From Spirogloea muscicola (lineage: Eukaryota; Streptophyta; Zygnematophyceae; Spirogloeales; Spirogloeaceae): a stretch of DNA of 53,287 bases. This document shows positions 1-43,545 of the stretch, piece after piece; the stretch's first letter is position 1; every line of letters starts with the position of its first letter. The notes beneath the pieces were generated by a model. That model was not told where the DNA came from and did not search any database. It saw only the letters and a program-made list of their open reading frames with translations. The position numbers and the translations under genes were made by a program. The DNA lies in assembly GCA_009602725.1 (NCBI GenBank), contig WELB01000163.1, forward strand, positions 6,364 through 59,650, written 5' to 3'.

Positions 1-96
<96 letters not shown>
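1..96. other. Poly-G run at sequence start (probable artefact)
   Basis: The first 96 bases are all G. A second pure G run of 24 bases ends exactly at the N gap at 21206. Homopolymer G at a contig edge and at a gap edge is what two-colour sequencing chemistry gives when signal is lost, so I read it as artefact and not as biological sequence. Confidence 0.85.
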
Positions 97-825: not shown

Positions 826-914
826 AAGAAAGTGCTCGCCCATTGAGATCAGGGGCTGGAAAAGCCAGCCCAAAAAGAATGAACAGAGTACGAGAAGGGG
901 GCCAGGGGAAGCGC
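826..914 (+). repeat. Hairpin module copy (SINE-like candidate)
   Basis: This copy holds gtgctcgcccattgag, then the hairpin GGGCTGGAAAAGCCAGCCC (7 bp stem, 5 base loop), then aaaaagaatgaacagagtac and gagaagggggccaggggaag. Near-identical copies lie at 33893-33978 (plus), 32621-32706 (minus) and about 42893-43000 (minus). Confidence 0.7.
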
Positions 915-1245: not shown

Positions 1246-2011
1246 TCATATGAGATTGATGTTACGATGGCTCTGTAATTTTGAGCAAAGGATTGACGTC
1301 CTTGTGTCAGTGTGTCGGTGGTCGAATCCACTTCTAGACAAGCGAGACCTAGGCCAAGGACTAAATCGAACCATCATCTCTGGATTTGCAATCCAATACA
1401 TAACTTTTTCATACTTAGCCATGAATTGAAATAAGAATGATCTATTTTGAAGTATCCCATTGGAGTATACAAGGTGTGTGTTGTAGAGTGCTCTATTATA
1501 CAAATGAATGGAGTAACGGCAATGGTATACACGGGGCTCACGAGACCCTGTGCACTTTTTATCTGCCGACTGACTTCACCCTACACACAATCAACAGGCT
1601 AGATGCAATAAACATGCCAGCATTTGGCATCTAAAAGCTCTGGAGAGGAGACAGCCAAAGAGTCAGCCAAAGACTGATGTAAGTACTGTAGTCTACCTCT
1701 TGTATTGCAGTCACGCCCAGCTGATGCCTTGATGTTGACAGAGTTAGGAGTATCCGCGAATATTGTTGTTGCACATAATGGACAGGCAATCGTGATGTTT
1801 GATTCTTCATGACAAGACAAGGGGTCCACCATAGACATCACAGACAAGTACCTGCCAAATGCTCACAGATCCTTAGCAAAATTGCACATTGTGCATGCAT
1901 TACCACTTGATATGCAGCTACTTACAGTATGTCAGCATATCAAAGCTCTCAAACGGGCGTAGATACAAACCATATAATACCCTTTTCACAGCAACATCAC
2001 ACGAGCAAGCA
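1246..2011. other. AT-rich intergenic stretch, possible mitochondrial insertion
   Basis: This stretch is visibly richer in A and T than its surroundings and has no gene I can support apart from the tRNA-Cys-like sequence at 1351-1420. The part from about 1600 to 2011 lies downstream of the REV1 stop and probably includes its 3' UTR. Short open frames here show no family signature. Confidence 0.4.
1351..1420 (-). tRNA. tRNA-Cys(GCA)-like, mitochondrial type, probably decayed
   Basis: Read on the minus strand the 70 bases fold partly as a tRNA. The acceptor stem GGCTAAG pairs fully with CTTGGCC (one G-T wobble) and is followed by discriminator T. The anticodon arm TTGGA-TTGCAAA-TCCAG gives anticodon GCA. 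The T arm keeps the TTCGA loop, but its stem has a mismatch and wobbles, and the D arm pairs poorly. The acceptor, anticodon arm and T discriminator resemble plant mitochondrial trnC rather than a nuclear tRNA-Cys. In a nuclear setting this suggests a decayed mitochondrial insertion. It could instead be a chance or a nuclear pseudo-tRNA. Confidence 0.45.
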
Positions 2012-27022: not shown

Positions 27023-28545
27023 GGCGAGCCTGCGGGAGCGCACGCTGCATGGTCAGAGCCTCGGAAGCGACTCGCTCAGCTTGGCTCTGCCAGAGCCCCA
27101 GAGCCCCAGAGCCCCAGAGCNGGCGGCGGCCATGGCGGCGAGGCCGCGGGCGCGCGCGGGCGCAGGGGATGCGGAAGGGGGCCTGATGCTGGGCCCAGGC
27201 GAACGGCAGCTACTGCATTATGGGACGGAGTCCTGGGCGCACCTTATCGGCGGCTTGCCCCCTTCTGGAGACGGGAGAGCCTCGGCTACTGGAGATGGGC
27301 GCCCGCGGCGAAGCCCGTCTCGTCCCTCGGGGCTGACGGCAGCGGAGCGGAAGCACAGCCCTCGCTTCCAGGACGCCGCCGAGCCGCCAGAAGCGCGGCC
27401 CCTGTTCCGAAACCCTCAAAAACCCTGAGCAACCCGCCGTCGACCGTGGCCCACCGCGGCCGACCCTGGGCATCCGGCACCAATGCCACAGTGCCAGCTT
27501 GCCCGCGCAGAGTCGGAGGAAGGACGTTCTTACAGAGAATGAGCTCGCCCATAGAAGAGAGGGGCTGGCAGAAGCCAGCCAAAAAAGAATGGACAAAATC
27601 CAAAGAGCTACAGGAGAATCACTCAGTAACCTCTGCTAAGCAGCCGCAGGTCGGATGCTAGGCTCGTTGAAGTGGGTCCCCTTACAGAAGGGGACGACTG
27701 CAGTGAGAGAAGAAAAAAAGGTCGAAGCGGCTCTTCAAACGGAGATGAGGAAAGCTGGCTAAGGTGATAGTACGATATTAGTACACAAGGGTAAGCACAT
27801 ACAGATCTGATAGGCTACCTCGGGGAGCCGGAGAATGAGAAGAAGAAAGTAAGCTCTTCCAAAGGGGGCGCGGGCTGTAAAAGGCCAGCCGAAAGTAAGT
27901 AAGCTCATCCAAGGGGGGGCGAGGGCTGTGATAAGCAAGGCCGAAAAGAATGGACATGGAAAAGGACCAAAAGGGCCAAAGGTCTGAATGGGCCGGAAAG
28001 CTCAGAGGCCAGACGGACTAGCAGACAGGGTAATGGCCGCACTGCTCAGCCTCCCCAGCCCTGCTGCCTCCAGTGTGAACTTGCGCAACCATTCACATCC
28101 TGTCACTGTGCGTCCTCACTAAAAAGGGCCTGGACAAGGGGCTAGATTATGGTTGGTGAGCCTTGACTCAGCATCTGCTCTGCACAGCTGTGCACAACCC
28201 AGGGGCCTGCTACACTCCTGATGCGCTAGCCCCTTCCTTCTCAAGGGAGAGGCTACAGAGCGGATTAAAGCTGCAAGGTCCAACAATAGTAGCTCTTCAA
28301 ACCCAGCTCACTGCCACTGCCTAGCAAGCATGTTATCCTTATTGTACACGAAGTCTCCAACCTCTCTACCAGTTTATCACCTATATCTCAATTGAATGCT
28401 CAGACCTCTTCAGCAAGTCAGAAGTTCTGCATTGGTGGTGTAAATGATGCTGGCAAATCATCTTTATCTACGGCGGGCAACTGGCTTATTGAACCATACC
28501 AGCTGTCGACACAGCTGCCAGGCTGCAATATGAGAAGAGCAATGG
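27023..28545. other. Intergenic, repeat pieces
   Basis: Contents: the promoter of the reductase (minus); a GAGCCCCA tandem run ending in an ambiguous base (about 27090-27121); hairpin-module relatives at 27555-27600, 27870-27895 and 27920-27955; a retrotransposon end piece at about 27785-27840; and a segment at 27600-27665 shared with 940-1005. A plus-strand frame starting at 27132 has no partner exons or domain. The methyltransferase stop is at 28546. Confidence 0.5.
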
Positions 28546-31480: not shown

Positions 31481-32430
31481 GGGTCTGTCTGGCTTGGATT
31501 GGCCTTCATTTCATTTCATGTGCACCGCGTGCCTTCTCTCTTTATCGAAGGGGGCAGGGGCTGTGAAAGCCAGCCCAGAAAGAATGATCAAGAAAGTGGC
31601 TCTCTCAAAGAGGGCAAGGGCTGTGAACAGCCAGCCAGAAAAGATATGACAAGGTCCGAAGTGGCCGAACAGCTGCTTTCCCAAAGCTCTTCCGCTAGGT
31701 AGTCACTTAGATAATCACTTAGATAGTCCTTTCAATCTCATGCGCACCGCGCACCTTCTCTCTTAGTAACCGCTAACTAAGAGCCGAAAGTCAGAAAGAC
31801 TAGCCGCCGGAGCAATCCCTTGGACGGAAGCTAGAGCTGCAGCTAGAGCACGGCCAGCATGCAGATGCAAGGTGTGGCCATGGACCGTGGAGTGATATTG
31901 ACAGGCGCATGCGAAACACCTGCGCTAGCCACCCAGCGGCGAATGTGCAGAGCCCAAAGCTGGTTACTCCAGAAGAGGGCGATGGCGGTGAACTCCTCAA
32001 CCCAAAAGAAGAATGAACAAAGTTCTAAGGGGCCAGAAAAGTTCTAAAGCATACTGCGAGTCAAGTGCCACTTTCGAAGGAAGTGAGCTCTATCAACCTA
32101 TGGGCAGAGGTCTGCAACAGGCCAAAGCGGGGATAGACAACTGAGGGGGAACTCGAGTACCCACGAATGAGCACGTACATATCTGCCAGCCTAATCTGGG
32201 CTGGAGCACCAGCCGACCCTGCGGAAACGGAACGCGAATAGCACGCAGGACATGAATCAGTCACTCGGACGGCCGCTAAGTAAGCCCTGGTCAACTTAAA
32301 CACACAATATAACACCTGATTAGTGGCCGCAAGCTCCAAAACGAGAGAATTTGCAGCTTTTCATAACGCTCTTCGACGCTTTTCGGACCTCCATCAATCA
32401 AACCACCCTCCATTCTCTGGAGGGTGGTTG

Positions 32431-32765
32431 ATGCGCGTCGTCGAAGTGGGGGGAGCAGCTTGGGCCACTCCAGCATTCCGCAGGCCTTAGTTGCATATAA
32501 TAGAATGCGGCTCTCACTTAGTTTGCAGCGCTCGCAAGCATTGGCTCTTCATCAACGTGCAGGGCGCGCTCTAAGTCATGCCTCCGGCTTTCGTGGCGGC
32601 GCTTCAGCTCCCCAAGTTCGCTTCCCCTGGCCCCCTTCTCGTTCTCTGTTCATTCTTTTTTGGGCTGGCTTTTCCAGCCCCTATCCTCACTGGGCGAGCA
32701 CTTTCTTTGTGCTCACCCGTGGGTATTGATGTCACCTTAGGCACCTTACTTTCGGTCTCCGTATT
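32431..32765 (+). mobile_element. LINE-like 3' end carrying a hairpin-module insertion
   Basis: The first 190 bases match 32905-33097 at an offset of 474 with only scattered differences and small indels. They encode MRLSLSLQRSQALALHQRAG in one frame. At about 32621 it leaves the sister copy, runs through a minus-strand hairpin module, and rejoins the sister at ttgtgctcacccg (about 32707). Confidence 0.8.
32621..32706 (-). repeat. Hairpin module inserted in a retrotransposon copy
   Basis: It contains the hairpin (here GGGCTGGCTTTTCCAGCCC) with flanks matching 826-914 reverse-complemented. The sister copy at 33098-33110 has about 13 other bases (agcttgtcggatt) at the same place, so this is a filled site beside an empty site, with some local loss or exchange of bases. 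Confidence 0.7.
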
Positions 32766-33892: not shown

Positions 33893-33978
33893 GTAAGTGC
33901 TCGCCCATTGAGAATAGGGGCTGGAAAAGCCAGCCCAAAAATAGAGTACGAGAAGGGGGCCAGGGGAAGCGCTAAGAA
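33893..33978 (+). repeat. Hairpin module copy
   Basis: Nearly the same sequence as 826-914: gtgctcgcccattgag, GGGGCTGGAAAAGCCAGCCC, gtacgagaagggggccaggg, aagcgctaagaaa. It lacks about 13 bases after the hairpin (the gaatgaac part). A minus-strand retrotransposon end piece follows directly (about 33985-34090). Confidence 0.75.
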
Positions 33979-39270: not shown

Positions 39271-39279
39271 GTCTCTCCG

Positions 39280-40345
39280 TCAATCGCGGTTTCCCGTGCT
39301 GCAGACGAGCAACCACTTGGAGCATCTCCGAAGTCTCCTCCAAGGGAATGCTCGAGGCCAGGCTCGGCTCCTATCTGTTTCGTCTCTGGGAGCGTCTAAG
39401 TGGCTCCGCGCTTTGCCTTTGCATGCGTGCTTGCGGATGGAAAATGCTTGGTTTTGCGATGCTATGCGCCGCCGTCTTGGTCTACCATCCCTGTGCTTGG
39501 CAGGGGTGACACAATGTGAAAGTGGGCTTATTGAGCATGATGCAGTGCACATGGGTGACCACGTGCTCAGGTGTGCCAAAGGCAGTGAGCGCACGGGCTC
39601 CCACAACCTCCTACGTGACGCCATGTATATGGCATCGTCAAGGAGGCGGGATATCAAGTGGCGTTGGAGAGCAGGAAGCGCGGCCAGATTGACTGGTGGC
39701 TGGGAAAGGCCAGCCCAAAGGAATGGCGTTGGAGAGCACCGGGGTGATGCCCGTCCAACTCCGCAACGCGGTCCCTCGGACGAGGCGTGTCGATCTGCTT
39801 GGCTTCCCCCTGGGAGGTGGCAAGTGGCTCCTCATGGACGTTGTCCTGACCGACAGCTTCCGGACGAAGGGCCCCGTAACTTCTGAGACCGGCTATGCCG
39901 TGAAGGTGGCCGAACAGAAGAAGTTGCACGAAGAACAAGGAACACCCGGCGGGTGATGCCTTTAACCCCCTGGCCATGGACATCCATGGGTGTTACGGGG
40001 ATCGGTGGTCTCGTTACTTTCGCTGCTGGCATTTCAAGCTGACCAGCGGCGCCGGGAACAGGGTGCAGCCCTTCCCGGTGGCTCGGTGCCTTTGGGTCTT
40101 GTGTCCTGCTACCGCATGCGTTTGTCTATGTCCCTACAGCGGTCCCAGGCGCTTGCTTTGCACCGCCGCGCTGGTCGCGCCCTTGCAGCAGCCTCTGTTG
40201 GTGGCAGAAGGGCTTGGAAGTTGCCATCTTGTACTCAGGCATTGAATAGCAAGACCTTTATTTGTTGACCCGTGGTAACTAAGCTGGTTAAATTGCAGTG
40301 GGTAATGTGCGTCATCAGATGTGCTTGCCTTTGTACTTGGCCACT
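39280..40345 (+). mobile_element. LINE-like element, longest C-terminal region of the first subfamily
   Basis: In plus frames, interrupted by at least three frameshifts, it encodes SLGASKWLRALPLHACL, the zinc-binding-like MGDHVLRCAKG, HNLLRDAM, RRVDLLGFPLGGGKWLLMDV, GYAVKVAEQKK, MDIHGCYGDRWSRYF and RMRLSMSLQRSQALALH, then the tail to 40345. The order GAS-WL-ALP, GDH-L-C, HN-LRD, R-VDL..G-LL-DV..K is typical of the region after the reverse transcriptase in algal and oomycete non-LTR elements. The RRVDL...LLMDV...K part resembles a PD-(D/E)XK nuclease core. No reverse transcriptase domain is present here. Confidence 0.8.
39674..39723 (+). mobile_element. 50 bp hairpin-bearing insertion with 15 bp target duplication
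   Basis: TGGCGTTGGAGAGCA occurs exactly at 39659-39673 and again at 39724-39738. The 50 bases between contain agcgcggccagattgactgg and the hairpin GGCTGGGAAAGGCCAGCC. Removing 65 bases restores a plausible junction in the retrotransposon frame. A second, diverged copy of the first 33 bases is at 43314-43346, so the insert is itself a dispersed element. Confidence 0.75.
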
Positions 40346-42892: not shown

Positions 42893-43000
42893 TTCTTAGC
42901 GCTTCCTTTGGCTTCCTCTGGCCCCCTTCTCGTTCTTTGTTCATTCTTTTTTGGGCTGGCTTGTCCAGCCCCTATCCTCAATGGGCGAGCCCTTTCTTTC
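42893..43000 (-). repeat. Hairpin module copy
   Basis: It reads, inverted, as 826-914: ttagcgcttcctttggcttc, ggcccccttctcgttctttg, then GGGCTGGCTTGTCCAGCCC and tcaatgggcgagc. It directly precedes another retrotransposon tail (43020-43145). Confidence 0.75.
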
Positions 43001-43019: not shown

Positions 43020-43545
43020 ACCAGTGACCTTCAGGCTTTGACCCGTGGTTACTGGTCAATCTGCTGAAATTTATGTAGATCTTTTGATGTGCTTGCCTTT
43101 GTACTTGGCCATTTGGCCTACGTTATTTTCAAATACACGAAATCCTCCATAGAAAAAGAGGGGCTAGCAATGCCAGCCCAGAAAAGAATGGACAACAAGG
43201 GAGGCGACGGGGAGGGCAAAGGTGGGCTGTACAGAGAAACTTCGTGTATTTGAAACAAGCGAAGGCCGAATGGCCAAGTACAAAGGCAAGCACATCTAAA
43301 GACAGAAAGAGCTAGCGCGGCCAGAATGAACTGGTGGCTGGGAAAGAACAGGAAGCTGGTCGAGCCTTATTAGCTGGTGGGTGGCACGGGCTTGCCAATC
43401 TGCCGTCCGGTATCCAGGCATTCGCTAGCGACGTCTATTATGTGCTGACTTGTGGTGTACTGAAAGGGTGAGCTTGGCAGCAAGTGATGTACAGTATAGT
43501 TGAAGTGCTTGCCCTTGTACTTGGCTACTGCAATTGGCCACCGTC
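43020..43545 (+). mobile_element. Two short LINE-like 3' ends and a second copy of the 50 bp insert
   Basis: Tails at 43020-43145 (plus), 43225-43310 (minus) and 43345-43545 (plus) each carry the tggccaagta or complement block. Between them 43314-43346 repeats agcgcggccagaatgaactg and gtggctgggaaag from the insertion at 39674. Confidence 0.65.

What the first reader, a model, noticed from the sequence alone, without database searches (positions are those of the whole stretch)
39659..39738. A 50 bp hairpin element with an exact 15 bp target duplication inside a retrotransposon copy
TGGCGTTGGAGAGCA flanks the insert on both sides without a mismatch. The insert carries GGCTGGGAAAGGCCAGCC, and its first 33 bases recur at 43314-43346. 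Duplications of this size are typical of target-primed reverse transcription. So a very short hairpin RNA seems to be mobilised, possibly by the LINE-like family it landed in. At 50 bp it would be far smaller than known SINEs.
Basis: partly seen in the sequence, partly recalled or inferred. Interest (0 to 1): 0.8.

Follow-up and report, generated by a model that had tools for sequence, protein, structure and literature searches.

The report
Tiny leftover of a retrotransposon's end
The 50-base hairpin insert is the last ~54 bases of a much longer genomic parasite (a LINE retrotransposon) that was copied very incompletely and pasted backwards into a related LINE; it is a clean example of an ordinary process, not a new ultra-small mobile RNA.

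Summary
In detail: an exact 15-bp duplication (39659-39673, 39724-39738) flanks a 50-bp insert, and 36 of 37 paired copies of the host LINE found elsewhere have one 15-mer and no insert. But the insert is not a free-standing hairpin element. On the minus strand it is the 3' terminus of a LINE: 57 nt identical to the end of a long LINE copy. Four long open frames (1350-1521 aa) with reverse transcriptase each have a related 3' end starting 61-80 nt after the frame ends. The exact 23-nt terminus occurs 337 times. In the 73 copies read, the other end varies from 24 to >500 nt, without a pile-up near 53 (3 of 73 at 50-57). Flanking repeats of at least 7 nt occur in 21 of 70 against a shuffled mean of 1.84. 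So it is a severely 5'-truncated LINE copy, most likely made by target-primed reverse transcription, antisense in a relative. The LINE resembles R2-type elements. That the hairpin is the RT-recognition stem-loop is inferred. Ordinary mechanism; interest low.

The parts
39659..39673 (.). left copy of the target-site duplication TGGCGTTGGAGAGCA (its last bases also fit the LINE end)
   Evidence: single copy in 36 of 37 paired empty sites
39673..39726 (-). 54-nt 5'-truncated LINE copy: 3' terminus of the LINE in minus orientation; LINE 3' end at 39673, truncation point at about 39726
   Evidence: 100% over 57 nt (window 39726-39670) with the L049 3' end; 98% over 54 nt with the 3' end of L114
   Evidence: sequence; predicted fold; related 3' ends after 4 of 4 long frames
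39724..39738 (.). right copy of the target-site duplication (its first TGG also fits the LINE)
39272..40265 (+). host: C-terminal coding remnant (open pieces in several frames) of a related LINE, interrupted by the insert at the start of its RLE-like region (placed by eye)
   Evidence: homologous C-termini; other genomic copies
43314..43346 (-). second, diverged and still shorter fragment of the same LINE 3' end (33 aligned columns, 94%); no clear flanking duplication

Best explanation
A LINE RNA with a stem-loop near its 3' end was brought to a target inside another LINE copy. The LINE protein nicked the plus strand after ...GGAGAGC(A), primed reverse transcription at the RNA's 3' end and stopped after about 54 nt. 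Second-strand cleavage and repair across a break staggered by about 11-15 bp joined the short cDNA to the target, with up to 3 nt (TGG) of microhomology at the 5' junction, leaving the fragment antisense to its host between a duplicated target. Shown: insertion with one-copy empty sites; identity of the insert with a LINE 3' terminus; a family of copies with variable 5' truncation and an excess of flanking repeats; long RT frames upstream of the same kind of 3' end. Inferred: target-primed reverse transcription itself, early RT stop as the cause of the shortness, a restriction-like endonuclease as the nicking enzyme, and the stem-loop as the RT-recognition element.
For: Empty sites: 36 of 37 pairs with exactly one 15-mer. 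Insert equals the LINE 3' end, 100% over 57 nt with L049. RT in L049 (RVT_1 2.1e-16) and in 4 of 4 long frames (E 2.3e-10 to 8.4e-16). A sequence profile of the 3' ends hits 61, 67, 65 and 80 nt after the frame ends of L114, L113, L115 and L116. 337 exact 23-nt termini, reversed control 0. 73 census copies, alike at that end by selection, run from 24 to >500 nt, median 81; without 9 interrupted copies, 64 with median 82. Repeats of at least 7 nt at both ends in 21 of 70; shuffled-pair mean 1.84, maximum 5 in 200. A-rich target before the 3' junction (A in 39 of 73 at -4, 37 of 73 at -3, 58 of 73 at -1; window A content 23%).
Against: Most copies show no clear duplication under the exact-match rule (49 of 70 below 7 nt), and for copies of 70 nt or less the signal is weaker (5 of 31 at 7 nt or more; control mean 0.59, maximum 3 in 200). 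9 of 73 census copies resume downstream, so they are interrupted rather than truncated. The fixed 3' end is imposed by the search pattern. The profile used has 21 hits in 37.6 kb of the five long loci (E up to 1), so such ends are common there and the position, not the presence, is the evidence. The insert's fold is not unusually stable (z -1.34; 19 of 200 shuffles as stable), and in 2 of the 7 LINE-strand folds (L113, window 42938-42999) the best structure does not hold the GGCTGG/CCAGCC stem. The RLE assignment rests on motifs read by eye; Pfam and a PDB profile search did not recognise that region.
Confidence: 0.93

Rival explanations
1. A free-standing ultra-short hairpin RNA (a ~50-nt SINE) is transcribed on its own and mobilised in trans by the LINE.
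For: The insert has a clean duplication; 31 of 73 census copies are 70 nt or less; at one locus a truncated LINE and a short-RNA copy look alike.
Against: No dominant length: 3 of 73 end at reference 50-57 and the largest pile-up is 4 of 73 at 36. Copies merge into longer ones that run into LINE coding sequence. ARAGORN found no tRNA in the window and Rfam no match at the element.
Confidence: 0.03
2. Filler DNA: a fragment of LINE sequence was captured during repair of a staggered double-strand break, without reverse transcription at the site.
For: Microhomology at the right junction (TGG); a TTTAGGG-like stretch also sits inside one copy (L090); many short copies lack a clear duplication.
Against: The window insert begins at the LINE's extreme 3' end, as do long copies with the same kind of flanking repeats and A-rich nick context. 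Because the census was chosen by that terminus, it does not show that fragments come only from there.
Confidence: 0.03
3. A miniature DNA transposon (MITE-like) with target duplication.
For: Small size and exact duplication.
Against: No inverted repeats of 12 nt or more in 39400-40000 (shorter ones were not sought); one end varies between copies; the flanking repeats vary in length.
Confidence: 0.01

Closest known systems
5'-truncated copies of R2 made by target-primed reverse transcription (PMC7650587, passages seen, part of the abstract among them)
   Same: Variable 5' end from incomplete first-strand synthesis.
   Different: Here copies are dispersed rather than in 28S genes, and many are only 24-70 nt.
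RLE-bearing LINEs (R2, R4, NeSL, HERO, CRE; PMC5678591 and PMC4640811, passages seen)
   Same: One long ORF; among solved proteins the RT matches R2; D..D..KX2KY pattern behind the RT.
   Different: Zinc-knuckle spacing by eye CX1CX12HX3C, not CX2-3CX7-8HX4C; insertions dispersed in the sample; host of the green lineage.
Dualen/RandI LINEs and SINEX SINEs of Chlamydomonas (PMC3747384, passages and part of its tables seen)
   Same: LINEs and SINEs of a green alga that share 3' ends; SINEX-2_CR ends in (CTTT)n, compare the family-B end CACTTTCTTTCTTTCTT in L012.
   Different: No apurinic-type endonuclease found in the four frames; Dualen encodes both endonucleases (PMC4640811, passages).
3' stem-loops of stringent LINEs such as ZfL2 and UnaL2 (PMC4176376, passages seen, part of the abstract among them)
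   Same: A stem-loop near the RNA 3' end; deleting it abolished retrotransposition of ZfL2-1 and ZfL2-2.
   Different: Requirement not tested here; no sequence relation shown.
R2 template jumps and short internally deleted elements, SIDEs (PMC3414825, passages seen)
   Same: Some copies here abut another family's 3' end within 40 nt of the break (9 of 73).
   Different: Three of those nine (L046, L066, L089) resume downstream, so nesting explains them; no 5'-end segment was seen joined.

Membership tests
[quoted passage not shown]
[quoted passage not shown]
   73 copies, 24 to >500 nt; 9 of 73 are interruptions. The fixed end is imposed by the search pattern.
[quoted passage not shown]
   Window copy. 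Family: 21 of 70 at 7 nt or more against mean 1.84; 49 of 70 show none that long.
RLE LINE (R2-like group) | Single long ORF with N-terminal zinc fingers | tested here: inconclusive
   One frame of 1350-1521 aa in four copies; zinc-finger-like motifs by eye in L114; only sub-threshold Pfam hits: Zn_SUZ12 0.029 in L113, C2H2 types 0.097-0.4 in L115
RLE LINE (R2-like group) | RT closest to R2 | tested here: met
   Among PDB sequences only: R2 proteins, best 2.7e-4 with L049 (two unrelated chains at 0.49 and 0.78) and 1.9e-7 with a four-sequence profile. The whole L114 frame found only an unrelated chain at 0.51. No tree built.
RLE LINE (R2-like group) | CCHC knuckle CX2-3CX7-8HX4C before the endonuclease | tested here: not met
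   A C, C, H, C set is invariant in 4 of 4 but spaced CX1CX12HX3C (by eye)
RLE LINE (R2-like group) | RLE catalytic pattern D..D..KX2KY | tested here: met
   D602, D617, K647, K650, Y651 invariant in 4 of 4; a profile of this region finds no PDB chain up to E 10
Dualen/RandI | Both apurinic-type and restriction-like endonucleases | tested here: not met
   No Pfam endonuclease family reported up to E 1 in the four frames; sequence outside these frames not examined
SINE | Discrete length and internal pol III promoter (tRNA, 5S or 7SL head) | tested here: not met
   Continuum of lengths; no Rfam match at the element and no tRNA by ARAGORN in the window; A and B boxes not searched
MITE | Terminal inverted repeats and two fixed ends | tested here: not met
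   Variable end; no inverted repeats of 12 nt or more
Stringent LINE 3' stem-loop | Stem-loop required for RT recognition | not testable with these tools
   Related 3' ends in five long copies; function needs an assay

The most novel reading that the evidence does not exclude
The 3' stem-loop segment is itself a preferred minimal template: a small processed 3' RNA, or a programmed early RT stop or jump near the hairpin, yields a distinct class of 24-70-nt retroposed hairpins (31 of 73 copies, 26 of 64 after removing interrupted copies) that in turn serve as landing sites for sister families, making ultra-short retroposition a regular output of this LINE.
Probability: 0.05. Interest if true: 0.55.

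Novelty: new member of a known kind. Interest (0 to 1): 0.2.

Why it matters
It closes a tempting claim of a 50-bp SINE, and gives a documented case of an extremely short LINE copy with empty sites, from a dispersed R2-like LINE group in a green-lineage genome. Such fragments can be mistaken for new small elements, hairpin RNAs or regulatory motifs when a window is read alone. The many copies with long open frames and a common kind of 3' end would be a useful set for asking how RLE-type LINEs choose targets outside rDNA.

Tried and rejected
Considered and rejected: free-standing short hairpin SINE, MITE, filler DNA at a break (see rivals). At first the plus-strand orientation suggested odd 3'-truncated copies; the long copies showed that the plus-strand left end is the LINE's 3' end. 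I first took all 73 census lengths as truncations; one search showed that 9 resume downstream (my criterion: restart within 25 nt of the break and within 400 nt downstream; some of these could be separate fragments). A template-jump reading of the nine copies that abut family-B ends is possible but not needed: three of the nine resume (L046, L066, L089). A covariation test of the hairpin was not run, because the stem hardly varies between families.

Limits: the census is 73 of 337 exact termini (the first 73 places listed, up to C31:213704), so diverged copies are under-sampled. Three of the 73 ran to the end of the fetched stretch (L020, L055, L091); their lengths are lower bounds and they were left out of the duplication count (70). 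One search scored 40 of 936 candidates and 40 of 687. Host identity is only green lineage (chlorophyll a/b-binding protein genes).

Full report
What was claimed. A 50-bp hairpin element with an exact 15-bp target duplication sits in a retrotransposon copy at 39659-39738, and might be an ultra-small mobile hairpin RNA.

Observation. The 15-mer TGGCGTTGGAGAGCA is present twice without mismatch, 65 bp apart. The window is C163:6364-59650 of a 153-Mb genome in 471 contigs. A search with window 39600-39800 (40 of 936 candidates scored) gave 78 matches: the window itself, 39 to the right half of the site, 37 to the left half, and one short one. 37 pairs could be formed, of which 36 overlap by exactly 15 nt and one by 11. 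These are empty sites with one copy of the 15-mer, so the window carries a true insertion with a target duplication. Two right-half matches stay unpaired; one of them (C124:103830, L002) has its own related fragment just upstream, at a different point.

Identity of the insert. A search with the insert gave 42 matches (40 of 687 candidates scored). Of 45 other copies with the full core in L002-L048, 43 continue with the same GACAA beyond the window insert's end; L030 and L040 do not. Followed further and read in reverse, that sequence leads into LINE coding sequence. L049 (C45:633600-640100) carries a reverse transcriptase domain (RVT_1, E 2.1e-16), and 57 nt at its 3' end are identical to window 39726-39670. 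Four further loci (L113-L116) have single open frames of 1521, 1517, 1350 and 1433 aa with RT. A sequence profile of the 3' ends hits shortly after each frame: L114 at 6032 (frame end 5971), L113 at 6098 (6031), L115 at 5761 (5696), L116 at 5848 (5768). The profile has 21 hits in the 37.6 kb of the five long loci, so it is the position that counts. The insert is therefore the 3' terminus of a LINE, lying antisense in a related LINE copy.

Copy census. The exact 23-nt terminus occurs 183 times forward and 154 times reverse, with no match to the reversed control. I read the first 73 listed places of the 337 (72 loci). Their lengths run from 24 to >500 nt, median 81; 31 of 73 are 70 nt or less. 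At most 4 of 73 end at one position (36), and 3 of 73 end between positions 50 and 57. Nine of the 73 resume downstream by my criterion and are interrupted rather than truncated; without them the median is 82 and 26 of 64 are 70 nt or less.

Target duplications. For 70 copies with both ends in hand, an exact repeat of at least 7 nt at the right place on both sides occurs in 21, against a mean of 1.84 and a maximum of 5 in 200 shufflings of flanks between copies. Split by size: 5 of 31 copies of 70 nt or less (control mean 0.59, maximum 3) and 16 of 39 longer ones (control mean 0.93, maximum 4). Good single cases are L094 (34 nt of LINE, 25-nt exact repeat) and L086 (12 nt). The 49 others have nothing that long under this strict rule. 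The target just before the LINE 3' junction is A-rich: A in 39 of 73 at -4, 37 of 73 at -3 and 58 of 73 at -1, although -1 may belong to the element.

The hairpin. The stem GGCTGG/CCAGCC recurs near the 3' ends of the LINE families seen here, with different loops. By folding energy it is unremarkable for the window insert (z -1.34, 19 of 200 shuffles as stable) and for L113 (z -0.01), but L115 and L116 are well below their shuffles (z -3.54 and -3.41, none of 200). In L113 and window 42938-42999 the best fold does not hold this stem. Since the stem hardly varies, covariation could not be judged. By analogy with ZfL2 LINEs, whose 3' stem-loop is required (PMC4176376, passages), it is likely the RT-recognition site; this is inference.

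Kind of LINE. Among solved proteins the RT region matches R2 proteins (best 1.9e-7 with a four-sequence profile; 2.7e-4 with L049); the whole L114 frame alone did not find them. Behind the RT lie an invariant C, C, H, C set and D602, D617 and KxxKY (647-651), invariant in four of four, which fits the KX2KY signature of RLE LINEs given in PMC5678591 (passages). The spacing of the C/H set does not fit the published CX2-3CX7-8HX4C, and neither Pfam nor a PDB profile recognised the region. No apurinic-type endonuclease was found in the four frames, which speaks against Dualen/RandI. Most RLE LINEs are site-specific, HERO holding many that are not (PMC4640811, passages); this family is dispersed. 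The host genome has chlorophyll a/b-binding protein genes, hence a green-lineage phototroph; I could not name it.

Verdict. A severely 5'-truncated LINE copy with a clean target duplication. The mechanism is well known; the LINE family may be undescribed, but I could not check that against a repeat database.

Noticed in passing
window 1-96: An uninterrupted run of 96 G at the very start of the window, possibly a sequencing or assembly artefact.
   Followed up: no
window about 30834, 33314, 38836, 49073 and 49147: A GAGAAGGCGCGCGG motif, twice 74 bp apart near 49.1 kb; similar sequence stands at element junctions in L042, L081 and L084: another dispersed repeat family.
   Followed up: partly
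window 828-885, 27538-27596, 31556-31590, 32647-32705, 33895-33943, 42938-42996, 43157-43194: Seven further matches to the LINE 3'-end sequence profile, mostly a sister family (B) ending ..ATGGGCGAGCACTTTC.
   Followed up: partly
L090, about position 97-115: A telomere-like stretch (GTTTAGGGTTTAGG) lies in the loop of the LINE 3' hairpin of this copy, which then resumes.
   Followed up: no
L046: A family-B fragment of about 52 nt is nested in a family-A copy with a short TGAAG repeat at its ends: an insertion of almost the same size as the window one, from another family.
   Followed up: partly
window 1351-1420 (-): A tRNA match just above Rfam's threshold (30.1 bits, E 0.042) that ARAGORN did not report; a tRNA-derived repeat or pseudogene is possible.
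   Followed up: no
G000, matches: 16 places of one LINE subfamily give the same RT score (594.4 bits, 71% to L049) with open frames of 1142-1403 aa: a recently expanded group.
   Followed up: no
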